A DNA stretch of 64,000 nucleotides from Candidatus Ozemibacter sibiricus (GTDB lineage Bacteria; Muiribacteriota; Ozemobacteria; Ozemobacterales; Ozemobacteraceae). The stretch spans positions 62,001 through 126,000 of the forward strand of contig QOQW01000018.1 of the NCBI GenBank assembly GCA_003327425.1, given 5' to 3'. Below are positions 17,754-21,855 of this stretch, one piece after another (position 1 is the first letter of the stretch; every line of letters begins with the position of its first letter). Position numbers and translations under genes: made by a program. The notes under the pieces are model-generated. The model made no database searches, had not been told where the DNA came from, and worked only from the letters and a program-made list of their open reading frames with translations.

Positions 17754-18782
17754 TCAGTATTCTTGTCCGGACATGATGAACTGTTTGATGAAGTTGTAGC
17801 GGGCGGGGTCCTGGGCCCGCAGGGTGGCGCTGTCTTCGAAATAGACCCGGACGCATTCGGCCATGTCTTCGGCCGGATTGGTATTGCCGTAGTCGCTGAT
17901 CGAACTGGTGCGGGGACGGTTGCCGGCCCAGAACAGCCTGGTCCATTGCTGCTCGATGGTCGGGTTGGATCGCTGGAAGGCATGGGTCATCTCGTGCACC
18001 AGGGTGCCGCGGAACGAGCCGTCGGCCAGGCAGGTCTTCGAGATGCGCATCAGACCAGTGGCGGGATCATACAGGCCGGCGCATTCGAACTGGGGACCCT
18101 GGATGCGCCCGTTGCTCTGGATGACCGTGGTGCAGCGGCGGAAGCCGGCCGGCAGGCGGGCCAGGACATCGCGCATCAGCCGGAGTTCGGACGCGCTCCA
18201 TTGGCCGGCCGAGCAGGAGAACCCGGCGCCGATGTCCTCGTTGGGGCCATTGCGCAGGGTGATCCCGAACTGGCTGCGGATCTCGCCGGCCAGCCCCTCG
18301 GCCGAGCCATCGCCGGTCGAGCCGGTCGAGGTGCCATCGGAGGTCGAGCCAGGGGTGCGGCCCGTGCTGGTGCCGCCCGTCGAGCCGGGACCGCTGGTGA
18401 TCCCAGGGCCGCCGATGGTCCCGATGTTGATGCCGAACAGGTTCAGGAGCTGAGAGATGAAGTTCCAGACCTTGGAGAAGACATTCCTGATGGTGTCGAT
18501 GATGCGTCCGACATCAGGAGGGCTGCCGGCGGAGGAATCGGAGCCGGGGTCGGTCGGATCGGTCTCGGAAACCTCGCTGGTGTCCTGGTCATCGGTGGGG
18601 AAGGTGTCGCTGGTGGCGTCGGACCCGGTATCGGTTCCGGTCACGGCTCCGCCGCCGTCATCCTCTCCCACGACCTCCTGGTCGGAGGGAATGATGTCTT
18701 CTTCCGCGCGGAGAGCGGCGGGGCCGCTCAGCACCATCATGGCCAGGACCAGGAGCGAGGTCAGGAGCCGGTATCGTGACAT
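17754..18782 (-). CDS. secreted putative zinc metallopeptidase (HEMTH zincin), paralogue 1
   Basis: 342 residues. A signal peptide ends near ALRAEE and is followed by PSDQEVVG, a motif shared with the next gene. Then come an Asp/Thr/Ser-rich linker (about 40-90), a short amphipathic helix (about 95-120), a Gly/Ser/Thr linker and a C-terminal domain of about 180 residues with H263-E-M-T-H267. The downstream block DYGNTNPAEDMAEC (about 297-310) holds Glu305 and Glu309 as candidate third zinc ligands, as in gluzincins. Four Cys lie in the catalytic domain, suggesting disulfides. AAGGAGGAG about six bases upstream supports ATG 18782. It is predicted periplasmic or secreted. The family is not identified and peptidase activity is inferred from HExxH. 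Confidence 0.75.
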   Translation of the reverse strand: MSRYRLLTSLLVLAMMVLSGPAALRAEEDIIPSDQEVVGEDDGGGAVTGTDTGSDATSDTFPTDDQDTSEVSETDPTDPGSDSSAGSPPDVGRIIDTIRNVFSKVWNFISQLLNLFGINIGTIGGPGITSGPGSTGGTSTGRTPGSTSDGTSTGSTGDGSAEGLAGEIRSQFGITLRNGPNEDIGAGFSCSAGQWSASELRLMRDVLARLPAGFRRCTTVIQSNGRIQGPQFECAGLYDPATGLMRISKTCLADGSFRGTLVHEMTHAFQRSNPTIEQQWTRLFWAGNRPRTSSISDYGNTNPAEDMAECVRVYFEDSATLRAQDPARYNFIKQFIMSGQEY

Positions 18783-18895
18783 GGGTATCTCCTCCTTGGC
18801 ACGCCCTTATCAGGGCGTCTGCAGGGATTACGCGCGGCGGAGCCGATTCGTTACCGGATGGTCGAGGTCCTTGTCGCAGACCGCTCAGCCGGCGT

Positions 18896-19867
18896 TCAGA
18901 ATTCCTTGCCTTCCATGATGTGGGTCTTGACGAACTCGTAGCGGGCGGGGTCGCGGCGTTTCAGCCAGGCGCCGTTGGTGTAGTAGAGGCTGACCGATTC
19001 GGCCATGTCCTCCAGGTAGTTGGTGTTGCCGTAGTCGGTGGGGGAGGACGTCCGGTTGCGGCCCCAGAACTGGGCGCGCCAGGCCTGGACGACGCGAGAG
19101 TTCCCCTGATAGTTGTGGGTCATTTCGTGGATGATGGTGCGGATGCCGGAAGAGCCCATGGTGGCGCCCGAATAGATCCAGATGTTGCCGCCGCCCACTT
19201 CGCCCAGGCCCAGCAGGCCGCCGCGGTAGCCTTCCATGGTCATCGTGCGGTTCCACTTGCGGAAACTGGCGGGCAGGACGCTGAGGGCCTTGTAGACCGC
19301 CTGCAGCGAGGCGACCGACCAGCGAGCGCTGCCATCGCGCATCGAGACCCCGAACTTGGAGCGGATTTCGGCCACCAACGTGGCTTTGTCGCCGGGGATG
19401 TCGCCGGTGACCCCGGTGCCGCCGGAGGGCGGATCGGGAGGTTCGACCCCGTAGCCGCCGCCGTCGTCATCGCCGCCGCCGGTCCAGCCGCCACCGCCGC
19501 CGCCATCGCCACCACCGGTCCAGCCGCCGCCACCACCGAAGATGCCGTTCAGGAACTCGCAGATCCGGCTGAACAGGTTGCCCAGGAACTGGAAGAGCCG
19601 GCCCAAGAAGCCGCAGCAGAACGCGGCGACCTGTTGGCCGGCGGCGGCGACCGGCGCGATCGCTGGATCCTCGGGCTCCGTGGCCGGGGCGGCCACCGCC
19701 TCTGAGCTGGGGCCCGCGACGGGCACAGCAGGCGCCGGGGGCAGGGGGGCGCCGACCGCTTCCTGGTCGGAGGGCAGGAGCGGTTCCTCGGCCATGCCAG
19801 GCAGGGGCAGGAAGACGGTCAGGACGACCAGCAGGGCCATGAGTCCGGTTTTCTGCCACGTTGTCAT
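18896..19867 (-). CDS. secreted putative zinc metallopeptidase (HEMTH zincin), paralogue 2
   Basis: 323 residues, paralogous to the gene just downstream. It has the same plan: signal peptide (cleavage near GMAEE), PSDQEAVG, Pro/Ala linker, amphipathic segment (about 82-110), a Gly/Trp-rich linker with two copies of GGGWTGGGD, then a catalytic domain with H247-E-M-T-H251 and the conserved block DYGNTNYLEDMAES (278-291), with Glu286 and Glu290 as possible third ligands. ATG 19867 follows AAGGAGGT; the 47 residues encoded upstream are spurious. The catalytic domains and both short motifs are conserved while the linkers have diverged almost completely, which points to selection on the catalytic part and the N-terminal tag. 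Confidence 0.75.
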   Translation of the reverse strand: MTTWQKTGLMALLVVLTVFLPLPGMAEEPLLPSDQEAVGAPLPPAPAVPVAGPSSEAVAAPATEPEDPAIAPVAAAGQQVAAFCCGFLGRLFQFLGNLFSRICEFLNGIFGGGGGWTGGGDGGGGGGWTGGGDDDGGGYGVEPPDPPSGGTGVTGDIPGDKATLVAEIRSKFGVSMRDGSARWSVASLQAVYKALSVLPASFRKWNRTMTMEGYRGGLLGLGEVGGGNIWIYSGATMGSSGIRTIIHEMTHNYQGNSRVVQAWRAQFWGRNRTSSPTDYGNTNYLEDMAESVSLYYTNGAWLKRRDPARYEFVKTHIMEGKEF

Positions 19868-20133: not shown

Positions 20134-20210
20134 TTCGCTTTCCTTTCCGGTTCCTTTCCGGTTCTTTGCGGCCGGTAGTTCTGACGAGCCACGCTGCGCA
20201 CGGGAGCGCC

Positions 20211-21140
20211 ATGGAAGACAAGATCATCGGGACCAGCCCAGGGATTCGCGAGGTCCTGTCCTTGGTCGAGAAGGTCTCTCCCAGCGATGTGACCGTCCTC
20301 ATCACCGGGGAAAGCGGCACGGGCAAGGAGATGGTCGCCAACACCATCTACCGTCTCAGCCCCCGGAACCAGAAACCCTTCATCAAGCTGAATTGCGCCG
20401 CCATCCCCAGCGAGCTGCTCGAGAGCCAGATGTTCGGCCATGAGCGCGGCGCCTTCACGGGAGCGGTGGCCCGCCAGGAAGGGTGCTTCGAACGAGCCAA
20501 CCACGGGGTGCTCTTCCTCGACGAGGTCGGCGACATGTCGCTGGTCACCCAGACCAAGCTGCTGCGGGTGCTGCAAGAGAAAGAATTCGAACGGATCGGC
20601 GGGAAGGAGACCATCAAGGTGGATGTCCGGCTGATCGCCGCCACCAACAAGAACCTCCAGGAAGAGATCCGCCAGAACCGATTCCGGGAAGACCTGTACT
20701 ACCGGTTGAATGTCGTTGAGATCCGCATTCCGCCGTTGCGCGAGCGTCTCGAAGATCTGGGCCTGCTCGTCGAATCCTTCCTGGCCATGTTCGTCAAGAA
20801 GTACAACAAAGAAGAGATGACGGTCAGCGAGGCGGCCATGAAGGTGCTGCAAGGCTATTCCTGGCCGGGCAACGTGCGGGAGTTGCGCAATGTCATCGAG
20901 CGCGCGGTCGTTCTGTCGCGGGGGGTGACCATCGAACCCGCCGACTTTCCTGACAAGGTGCGGGTTCCCCCCACCGGCGCCACCCCTCCCATGGGTGATG
21001 GCCAGATCCTCACCTTGGAAGAAATGGTTCGCCTCTACATCCGCAAGGTCGTCGAATACACAGGAGGGAACAAGCTCCAGGCAGCGCGCCTCCTCGACAT
21101 CGATCCCAAAACCCTGCGGACCAAATTGCACGCCGATTAG
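20211..21140 (+). CDS. sigma-54-dependent transcriptional activator lacking an N-terminal sensor domain
   Basis: 309 residues. The protein begins straight at the AAA+ domain: Walker A GESGTGKE (33-40), the sigma-54 contact loop GAFTGA (80-85), Walker B LFLDEVGD (101-108), and the arginine-finger region FREDLYYRL. The C-terminus carries a Fis-type helix-turn-helix (GGNKLQAARLLDID...). Such proteins hydrolyse ATP to open sigma-54 RNA polymerase promoters. A receiver, GAF or PAS domain is missing, as in PspF or HrpR/S, so activity must be controlled by a partner or by expression. ATG 20211 is preferred over an upstream TTG at 20166, which adds sequence without homology. ComFB-like and STAS genes follow 15 and 25 bases after each other. 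Confidence 0.93.
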   Translation: MEDKIIGTSPGIREVLSLVEKVSPSDVTVLITGESGTGKEMVANTIYRLSPRNQKPFIKLNCAAIPSELLESQMFGHERGAFTGAVARQEGCFERANHGVLFLDEVGDMSLVTQTKLLRVLQEKEFERIGGKETIKVDVRLIAATNKNLQEEIRQNRFREDLYYRLNVVEIRIPPLRERLEDLGLLVESFLAMFVKKYNKEEMTVSEAAMKVLQGYSWPGNVRELRNVIERAVVLSRGVTIEPADFPDKVRVPPTGATPPMGDGQILTLEEMVRLYIRKVVEYTGGNKLQAARLLDIDPKTLRTKLHAD

Positions 21141-21155
21141 GCGGGGGTACACCGT

Positions 21156-21428
21156 ATGGCAGAAATCCAGATGATCAACAAAATGGAATCTGTGGTAAAA
21201 TCGGTGGTGGAGAATTACCTGCATGACCACCCCGATATCTGTTCGTGTGAACGTTGCACGCTGGATATGATCGCTTTGACCCTGAACGCGCTGCCGCCCA
21301 GGTACGTGGTGACCACGCTGGGCGAGGTCGTGACCAGCGTCGACCTCCAAGGGATCCAATCCACCGCGGATATCATGATGGCACTCATGCGGTCCATCGA
21401 GATCGTGAAGAAAAAACCAAGACACTGA
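21156..21428 (+). CDS. ComFB-like (late competence development) family protein
   Basis: 90 residues, cytoplasmic. The pattern ICSCERCTLDMIALTLNALPPRYVV is typical of ComFB: a Cys cluster (Cys29, 31, 34) followed by helix and LPPRYVV. In several bacteria ComFB-like proteins bind cyclic di-nucleotides such as c-di-GMP and influence motility or competence; whether this one does is unknown. It starts 15 bases after the sigma-54 activator and ends 25 bases before the STAS gene, suggesting a three-gene regulatory operon. Confidence 0.85.
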   Translation: MAEIQMINKMESVVKSVVENYLHDHPDICSCERCTLDMIALTLNALPPRYVVTTLGEVVTSVDLQGIQSTADIMMALMRSIEIVKKKPRH

Positions 21429-21453
21429 CCTAGATAGGTGAAAGGGGAATCAA

Positions 21454-21825
21454 ATGGCAGACCAGAAAACCGCAGGCGGGAAAGAGAAGCTGTCCTTCGA
21501 TCGTCGCGATGGCGTGAAGGGCTATACCATCCTCTCCCTGATCGGCGATCTCGACATGTGGACCCTCCCCCTGGCCAAAGAACGCATCAACGGCCTGGTC
21601 AACGAGGGCAAGGTCAAGATCATCCTCGACCTCGAGCGGATGAACTACATCGACTCGTCCGGTCTCGGCTTCTTCATCGGCACGCTCAAGAAGCTGCGGG
21701 ATGCGGGCGGCGACCTCATCCTGGTCAACCTCAACGCGTACATCTACGGCATTTTCAAGCTCATCCAGCTGCAGCACATCATCAAGACCTACGACAGCCT
21801 GGAAGAAGCCGAAAAAGAACTCTGA
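21454..21825 (+). CDS. STAS-domain anti-sigma factor antagonist
   Basis: 123 residues, one STAS domain. The signature NYIDSSGLGFF contains the phosphorylatable Ser (68 or 69) before GLG; ILDLERM and LILVNLN complete the fold. Homologues such as SpoIIAA/RsbV bind an anti-sigma kinase when unphosphorylated and are reset by SpoIIE-type phosphatases, two of which lie at 7998-14161. GAAAGGGGAA precedes the ATG. No anti-sigma kinase (SpoIIAB/RsbW-like) was seen in this window. Confidence 0.93.
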   Translation: MADQKTAGGKEKLSFDRRDGVKGYTILSLIGDLDMWTLPLAKERINGLVNEGKVKIILDLERMNYIDSSGLGFFIGTLKKLRDAGGDLILVNLNAYIYGIFKLIQLQHIIKTYDSLEEAEKEL

Positions 21826-21855
21826 ACCGAAGTTTTATTTGAAAGGACCTGTCCT

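What the first reader, a model, noticed from the sequence alone, without database searches (positions are those of the whole stretch)
17754..19867. Pair of secreted HEMTH zincins with a shared PSDQExVG tag
Two adjacent secreted proteins keep HEMTH, the block DYGNTNxxEDMAE and a short motif PSDQExVG just after the signal peptide, while the linkers between these parts differ almost completely. Both also have an amphipathic segment before the catalytic domain. The catalytic family is not one I recognise. The conserved N-terminal tag may be a sorting or binding site.
Basis: partly seen in the sequence, partly recalled or inferred. Interest (0 to 1): 0.58.

Follow-up and report, generated by a model that had tools for sequence, protein, structure and literature searches.

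The report
Secreted proteases with N-terminal address tags
Two neighbouring secreted zinc proteases of an uncultured bacterium carry a short peptide label at the front of the mature protein; unrelated wall- and protein-cutting enzymes of close relatives carry the same label, and a sister label in the same protease family sits in gene clusters for pilus-like secretion machines, so the label may be an address for export.

Summary
Both ORFs (17754-18782 and 18896-19867, minus strand) encode a Sec signal peptide, the tag EExxhPSDQExVG at residues 27-39, a strongly amphipathic helix, a low-complexity linker and one catalytic domain. That domain is a gluzincin of the lethal-factor/PPEP/MtfA fold (HEMTH plus Y298-x6-E305; VIA Z 10-14), below every Pfam cut-off. 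It is multicopy in Candidatus Riflebacteria: 27 of 39 phylum genomes, six copies here.

The tag is more than a family trait. Within the genus it also heads another HETTH protein, a C39-like peptidase, a glucosaminidase (variant tag) and two unassigned proteins. In two ortholog pairs it is nearly unchanged while its flanks drift.

Most of the family carries a different tag (SYLDTIYxA) at the same place. In ten active-gene loci, and in all seven genes for catalytically dead tandem partners, that tag stands beside same-strand pseudopilin genes. Best reading: mature N-terminal docking tags that load Sec-exported hydrolases onto pseudopilin tips, working like TcpF/CofJ on type IVb pili.

The pseudopilin link is circumstantial for the SYLDTIY tag and absent at every PSDQE locus read. 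No binding, secretion or proteolysis is shown.

The parts
17754..18782 (-). Tagged secreted zincin 1 (342 aa)
   Evidence: ORF; AlphaFold; paralogues
18705..18782 (-). Zincin 1: predicted Sec signal peptide, residues 1-26
   Evidence: Sequence pattern; helix 3-19 in the model; cleavage site inferred
18666..18704 (-). Zincin 1: tag EEDIIPSDQEVVG, residues 27-39
18438..18512 (-). Zincin 1: amphipathic helix, residues 91-115
   Evidence: pLDDT about 80; moment 0.70, 4 of 1000 shuffles reach it
17757..18305 (-). Zincin 1: catalytic domain, residues 160-342, lethal-factor/PPEP/MtfA fold
17982..17996 (-). Zincin 1: HEMTH, residues 263-267
17856..17891 (-). Zincin 1: Y298-x6-E305 D M A E309
   Evidence: YX6E signature in passages of PMC6356308 and PMC12828418
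18896..19867 (-). Tagged secreted zincin 2 (323 aa, ATG at 19867)
19790..19867 (-). Zincin 2: predicted Sec signal peptide, residues 1-26
   Evidence: Sequence pattern; cleavage site inferred
19751..19789 (-). Zincin 2: tag EEPLLPSDQEAVG, residues 27-39
   Evidence: 13 of 14 residues of the tag stretch kept in the ortholog L091/L108
19538..19621 (-). Zincin 2: amphipathic segment, about residues 83-110
   Evidence: Moment 0.68, 0 of 1000 shuffles reach it
18899..19390 (-). Zincin 2: catalytic domain, about residues 160-323
   Evidence: Alignment
19115..19129 (-). Zincin 2: HEMTH, residues 247-251
18998..19033 (-). Zincin 2: Y279-x6-E286 D M A E290

Best explanation
The two genes encode Sec-exported zinc endopeptidases of the lethal-factor/PPEP/MtfA fold. 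After signal-peptide cleavage the new N-terminus exposes a short disordered tag (EExhPSDQExVG). The tag, helped by the amphipathic helix behind it, is an address read by a shared receptor, so that hydrolases of unrelated folds can be sent to the same place through a flexible linker. The most likely reader is the tip of a type II/IV pseudopilus (minor pseudopilins), working like the N-terminal type IVb pilus secretion signal of TcpF and CofJ. Shown by sequence: the tag, its sharing across enzymes, its conservation, and the conserved operons of the sister tag SYLDTIYxA with pseudopilin genes. Inferred: that the tag is an address at all, that its reader is a pseudopilin, and that the PSDQE tag works like the SYLDTIY tag. 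By fold and motifs the domain should cut extended peptides; its substrate is unknown.
For: 1) PSDQE just after a signal peptide: 4 proteins here against 0.003 expected. With two same-genus genomes there are 10 tagged proteins (8 exact, 2 variants): 4 of this zincin family, 2 orthologous HETTH proteins, 1 C39-like, 1 glucosaminidase, 2 unassigned. 2) In two ortholog pairs the tag is 13/14 and 12/13 identical with 11 of 13 codon changes synonymous; the linkers are 18/45 and 45/58 identical, the signal peptides 16/25 and 18/29. 3) The tag is disordered in the model and sits on unrelated domains, so it is not an active-site part. 4) 9 of 10 tagged proteins have a strong amphipathic helix; lipoprotein members have one directly after the lipobox, so a lipid anchor and a tag occupy the same place. 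5) A second tag, SYLDTIYxA, is in 19 of 24 family genomes. It is on zincins in 28 of 29 loci read and on a thioredoxin-like protein in one. 6) 17 of 25 such genes have a same-strand pseudopilin within 2.5 kb, against 7 of 288 background genes; the order is conserved and a related cluster is in this genome. 7) 7 of 7 tandem partners lost HExxH in both domains but kept the tag. 8) The genome has 111 N_methyl, 22 T2SSF and 5 secretin matches.
Against: No PSDQE gene read has a pseudopilin neighbour: 0 of 4 zincin genes, and none was flagged in any of the eight PSDQE neighbourhoods. The PSDQE tag has no aromatic residue, unlike the TcpF/CofJ signals. It is limited to one genus (3 of 24 family genomes). 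The C39-like protein has no amphipathic helix before its domain (0.25). The 17-of-25 count is not independent: most of these loci are orthologous operons of one lineage, and 8 of 18 active SYLDTIY-type genes have no pseudopilin nearby. Pseudopilins are so common here that adjacency alone is weak evidence. No complex was modelled, and the pseudopilin subunit names rest on weak or absent profile matches.
Confidence: 0.45

Rival explanations
1. The tag with the amphipathic helix is a surface- or membrane-retention module unrelated to pseudopilins: the tag binds an outer-membrane or envelope protein, the helix lies on the membrane, and the hydrolase is displayed on a flexible stalk.
For: Amphipathic helix in 9 of 10 PSDQE proteins; lipoprotein members replace the tag by a lipobox and keep the helix; no pseudopilin flagged beside the PSDQE genes.
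Against: The catalytically dead tandem partners keep their tag with only a short stretch and, by eye, no clear amphipathic helix before the first domain. The conserved pseudopilin operons of the sister tag are left unexplained.
Confidence: 0.27
2. The tag is a propeptide or zymogen element that keeps the enzyme latent until it is cleaved off.
For: Position directly after the signal peptide, upstream of the catalytic domain.
Against: One tag on folds with unrelated active sites; disordered in the model; the sister tag is kept on partners without an active site.
Confidence: 0.06
3. No function: the N-terminal piece was copied from gene to gene by recombination and is conserved by recent common descent only.
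For: Limited to one genus; the signal peptides are similar too.
Against: The tag is kept with mostly synonymous codon changes while signal peptide and linker drift. The four PSDQE zincins do not form one clade in the tree (p-AU 0.036; modest, and it would also fit recombination).
Confidence: 0.15
4. The tag marks substrates for an envelope protease or a sortase-like enzyme and is removed or joined to another molecule.
For: A short conserved linear motif in a disordered region.
Against: No partner enzyme was found or sought; the known sorting motifs of that kind are C-terminal (recalled, not from a call).
Confidence: 0.07

Closest known systems
Type IVb pilus secretion signal of TcpF (Vibrio cholerae) and CofJ (ETEC), PMC9565799 (abstract and passages read)
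   Same: Sec-exported soluble protein whose flexible mature N-terminus carries a short signal; TcpF is encoded in the same operon as the minor pilin that docks it (as for the SYLDTIY tag); an aromatic residue is central there, and SYLDTIY has two.
   Different: There one pilus is described with one secreted protein and a lineage-specific signal. Here one signal is shared by many unrelated hydrolases. The PSDQE tag has no aromatic residue and no pilin neighbour was seen. Binding untested.
PilY1 with its minor pilin clusters, PMC7541494 (abstract and passages read)
   Same: A type I signal-peptide protein encoded with PilX/PilW/PilV-like minor pilins and proposed as an analogue of T2SS substrates; several clusters per genome.
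   Different: No PilY1 domain was matched; the partner is a small peptidase or its dead copy behind a flexible linker.
Pro-Pro endopeptidases PPEP-1/2/3, PMC12828418 (passages read)
   Same: Secreted zincin fold (VIA Z 10.7-11.4); HEXXH; PPEP-3 Tyr190 and third ligand Glu197 lie seven residues apart, as Y298 and E305 do; His157 to Glu197 is 40 residues, H267 to E305 is 38.
   Different: 14-21% identity over the aligned residues; specificity unknown; no such tag, helix and linker were described in the passages read.
Anthrax lethal factor C-terminal domain and MtfA (M34/M90), PMC6356308 and PMC5668564 (passages read)
   Same: Fold (lethal factor Z up to 14.0; Klebsiella 3dl1 Z 10.5, which I take from recall as MtfA) and HEXXH + YX6E.
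   Different: Below the Pfam cut-offs for ATLF and M90. Only the peptidase domain of lethal factor is matched by the domain. MtfA is cytoplasmic (recalled).

Membership tests
Lethal-factor/PPEP/MtfA-like gluzincins (M34/M90 group) | HEXXH on a helix | tested here: met
   HEMTH 263-267 in helix 257-272
Lethal-factor/PPEP/MtfA-like gluzincins (M34/M90 group) | YX6E, with the Glu as third zinc ligand | tested here: met
   Y298 and E305; Y298 invariant and E305 nearly invariant in 32 sequences; signature from PMC6356308. The ligand role is inferred.
Lethal-factor/PPEP/MtfA-like gluzincins (M34/M90 group) | Shared fold | tested here: met
   VIA Z 13.3-14.0 for most lethal factor rows (9.8-12.9 for six others), 10.7-11.4 PPEPs, 10.3-10.5 3dl1/3khi; Foldseek E from 1.5e-3 for lethal factor, weaker than 0.001
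Pfam PF07737 ATLF | Profile score over the curated cut-off | tested here: not met
   17.5 against 27.4 bits
Pfam PF06167 Peptidase_M90 | Profile score over the curated cut-off | tested here: not met
   23.1 against 26.2 bits
Pro-Pro endopeptidase | Cleaves between two prolines | not testable with these tools
   No assay
TcpF/CofJ-type pilus secretion signal | Short flexible N-terminal peptide on a Sec-exported soluble protein | tested here: met
   signal peptides by pattern only
TcpF/CofJ-type pilus secretion signal | Encoded with the cognate minor pilin | tested here: inconclusive
   Met for the SYLDTIY tag in 17 of 25 genes; not met for PSDQE, 0 of 4
TcpF/CofJ-type pilus secretion signal | Critical aromatic residue in the peptide | tested here: inconclusive
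   SYLDTIY has Tyr; PSDQE has none
TcpF/CofJ-type pilus secretion signal | Binds the minor pilin and is exported by the machine | not testable with these tools
   No complex prediction or experiment
PilY1 | C-terminal PilY1 propeller domain | tested here: not met
   No such Pfam family among the matches to the two window proteins or among the 25 listed of 27 families matched by the 32 members scanned

The most novel reading that the evidence does not exclude
Riflebacteria use short linear N-terminal address tags, read by dedicated minor pseudopilin tips, to load many unrelated hydrolases onto a type II/IV secretion machine, with catalytically dead zincin tandems as structural partners. It would be a transplantable sequence signal for pseudopilus-dependent export, shared across folds.
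Probability: 0.25. Interest if true: 0.85.

Novelty: new variant of a known kind. Interest (0 to 1): 0.6.

Why it matters
[quoted passage not shown] A tag that recurs at the same place on unrelated enzymes, plus a sister tag in operons with pseudopilins and a dead enzyme copy, gives concrete peptides and cognate pseudopilins to test. It also adds a phylum-wide, multicopy secreted branch to the lethal-factor/PPEP/MtfA fold. I found no paper on it in the listings, which searched Riflebacteria with peptidase, Ozemobacter, Riflebacteria with pseudopilin, Riflebacteria with secretion terms, and type II secretion with pseudopilin and metalloprotease. The library is open-licence PubMed Central only, and the tag letters themselves were not searched.

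Tried and rejected
Pattern searches outside a signal-peptide setting: of 13 places with CCNWSNGAYCARGAR in this genome (control 2), 4 follow a signal peptide. The other 9 are other frames, internal sites, the T/C variants that the pattern also allows, or a stop. In one search the matches outside the genus (E 0.004-0.09) were read: those that passed the script's filter are signal-peptide likeness without PSDQE. L110 (G010) holds PSDQE right before a stop, after a run of repeats; all of these were dropped. A zymogen role is unlikely because the tag is shared by unrelated folds. Shared neighbours of PSDQE genes: an all-against-all comparison of 11 regions found mainly orthologous gene order and the zincins themselves. 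NCBIfam gave nothing for the window proteins, and a single-sequence PDB search gave nothing. The profile PDB search gave a low-complexity match, weak VgrG2b and lethal factor matches and other unrelated weak ones. A viral-contig scan found 1 relative.

Limits of the counts: tag classes are regular expressions. They filed L065's second gene as lipoprotein and the L006-type N-terminus (SPFQDVLITTEDQ) as other; 8 of 18 active SYLDTIY-type genes have no pseudopilin within 2.5 kb. A first version of the count missed pseudopilins and was replaced. The tree has 44 rows after duplicates and rows without HExxH were left out; its bootstrap had not settled and long branches meet. A list of pseudopilins was cut short by the tool, so only totals are used. 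The second AlphaFold model (L094) gave a low-confidence short helix in the tag (residues 29-36) and a helix 72-93; it was not fold-searched.

Full report
What is there. The window lies in a 5.68 Mb genome (G000, 97.87% complete) whose named relatives are mostly Candidatus Riflebacteria/Ozemobacteraceae. Two minus-strand ORFs, 17754-18782 and 18896-19867, code for 342 and 323 residues. Each has a signal peptide by pattern, then EEDIIPSDQEVVG or EEPLLPSDQEAVG, an unlike linker, an amphipathic segment, a second linker and a catalytic part with HEMTH and DYGNTNxxEDMAE.

The catalytic domain. AlphaFold2 on window protein 1 with 31 relatives gives about 97 pLDDT for residues 160-342 and below 50 for most of the tag and linkers. 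VIA comparison gives Z up to 14.0 for lethal factor, 10.7-11.4 for PPEP-1/2/3 and 10.3-10.5 for the Klebsiella structures 3dl1 and 3khi, which I take from recall as MtfA. Foldseek's own E-values for lethal factor start at 1.5e-3, and its only rows better than 0.001 are the two chains of 4l7a, a putative metallopeptidase. MtfA and lethal factor share HEXXH and YX6E (PMC6356308, passages); PPEP-3 has His153/His157, Tyr190 and Glu197 (PMC12828418, passages). Window protein 1 has H263/H267, Y298 and E305. Pfam scores stay below cut-off for M90 (23.1 of 26.2) and ATLF (17.5 of 27.4). I therefore call it a new branch of this fold group, not a member of a named family. The family has 6 copies in this genome (leaving out a seventh match with E 0.03 and a stop) and occurs in 27 of 39 genomes of the phylum.

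The PSDQE tag. Of 13 matches to the tag's DNA pattern in this genome, 4 follow a signal peptide: the two window genes, L002 and L003; a profile of the N-terminus, built from these four and L048, finds the same four. Expected by composition: 0.003. Among 24 family genomes only the three of this genus have strong matches: 4, 2 and 2. G001 has two more variant forms that I accepted after reading them. The ten proteins are four zincins of this family, two orthologous HETTH proteins without a Pfam family over cut-off, one C39-like peptidase (PF13529, 31.2 bits, cut-off 24), one glucosaminidase with the variant LSSDEE (PF01832, 5e-38), and two proteins with no Pfam family over cut-off (L107/L048 and L121). 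L107 looks NlpC/CHAP-like to my eye only. Nine of the ten have an amphipathic helix with moment 0.62-0.73; the C39-like one does not.

Selection on the tag. In the ortholog pairs window protein 2/L108 and L002/L116 the tag is 13/14 and 12/13 identical, and 11 of its 13 changed codons are synonymous. Linkers are 18/45 and 45/58 identical, signal peptides 16/25 and 18/29, amphipathic parts 19/28 and 28/40, catalytic parts 154/163 and 233/260. The second linkers, 41/48 and 46/68, also belong in this comparison. In the zincin tree window protein 1 is nearest to lipoprotein L005, and window protein 2 pairs with L091; holding the four PSDQE zincins together is mildly rejected (p-AU 0.036).

A sister tag. 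Many other family members have a different conserved stretch just after the signal peptide, consensus QSxSYLDTIYxAxxxG. A profile of it has matches in 19 of 24 family genomes. Of the 30 loci given for it, 29 could be read (L148 has too short a frame; loci of the weakest own-genome matches were not counted): 28 carry the zincin domain and one, L143, a thioredoxin-like domain. Ten further matches got no locus and were not read. Lipoprotein members (L005, L074, L077) start their amphipathic helix right behind the lipid cysteine.

Pseudopilin operons. In L092 the order is a 701-residue protein with a PilX/GspK-like start, two pseudopilins, the tagged zincin, a second tagged protein, then further pseudopilin-like genes. 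L083, L085, L089, L094 and L096 repeat the first five positions, the small first pseudopilin being seen there; L084 is cut or altered at its start. Profile support is thin: N_methyl at 21.5 and 30.7 bits for two L092 proteins (cut-off 21.2), weak XpsI and GspH matches, none for the 701-residue protein. In this genome the zincin pair on contig 45 lies among pseudopilin genes. Same-strand pseudopilins within 2.5 kb: 17 of 25 SYLDTIY-type genes (10 of 18 active, 7 of 7 inactive), 0 of 4 PSDQE zincin genes, 1 of 16 other, 1 of 4 lipoprotein-type, 7 of 288 background genes from 40 windows of two genomes. These loci are related by descent, so no probability is claimed. The genomes are rich in pseudopilins: 111, 131, 122 and 85 N_methyl matches in four genomes; this genome also has 22 T2SSF and 5 secretin matches.

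Dead partners. The second tagged gene of these operons encodes two zincin-like domains in tandem, both matched by the family profile. In 7 of 7 proteins neither domain has HExxH, yet the tag is kept. A tag kept without an active site argues for assembly or delivery, not catalysis.

Mechanism. TcpF and CofJ dock by a short mature N-terminal peptide on a trimeric minor pilin; that peptide is called the T4bP secretion signal (PMC9565799, abstract and passages). PilY1 is encoded with minor pilins and was proposed as an analogue of T2SS substrates (PMC7541494, passages). The SYLDTIY tag fits this pattern by position, operon and aromatic residues. The PSDQE tag fits by position and modular sharing only. 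I rate an address or docking tag as likely and a pseudopilin reader as plausible.

What is not shown: cleavage sites, secretion, binding, proteolysis, and any direct link between PSDQE and a pseudopilin.

Noticed in passing
L083, L084, L085, L089, L092, L094, L096 (second tagged gene, e.g. L092 8611-9963): Tandem zincin-like proteins in which both domains have lost HExxH, encoded directly behind the active enzyme.
   Followed up: partly
G000, G005, G009, G012: 85 to 131 N_methyl (pseudopilin) matches per genome in these Riflebacteria, a very large repertoire.
   Followed up: partly
L002 1399-2805 and L116 1501-2928: Tagged secreted protein with HETTH and a Cys/Gly-rich N-terminal part; no Pfam family over cut-off.
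   Followed up: no
L094/L201 (DYKG01000028): Contig titled Candidatus Methylomirabilis whose length equals that of G009 contig 78 (45334), a genome the tool places in the window's own family; the record title is probably wrong.
   Followed up: no
L143 607-1629: SYLDTIY-tagged protein with a thioredoxin/DsbH-like domain instead of the zincin.
   Followed up: partly
window 20166-21842: A sigma-54-type regulator, a small protein and a STAS-domain protein divergent from the pair, kept beside tagged zincins in G001 and G002 (names are my reading of the sequences).
   Followed up: no
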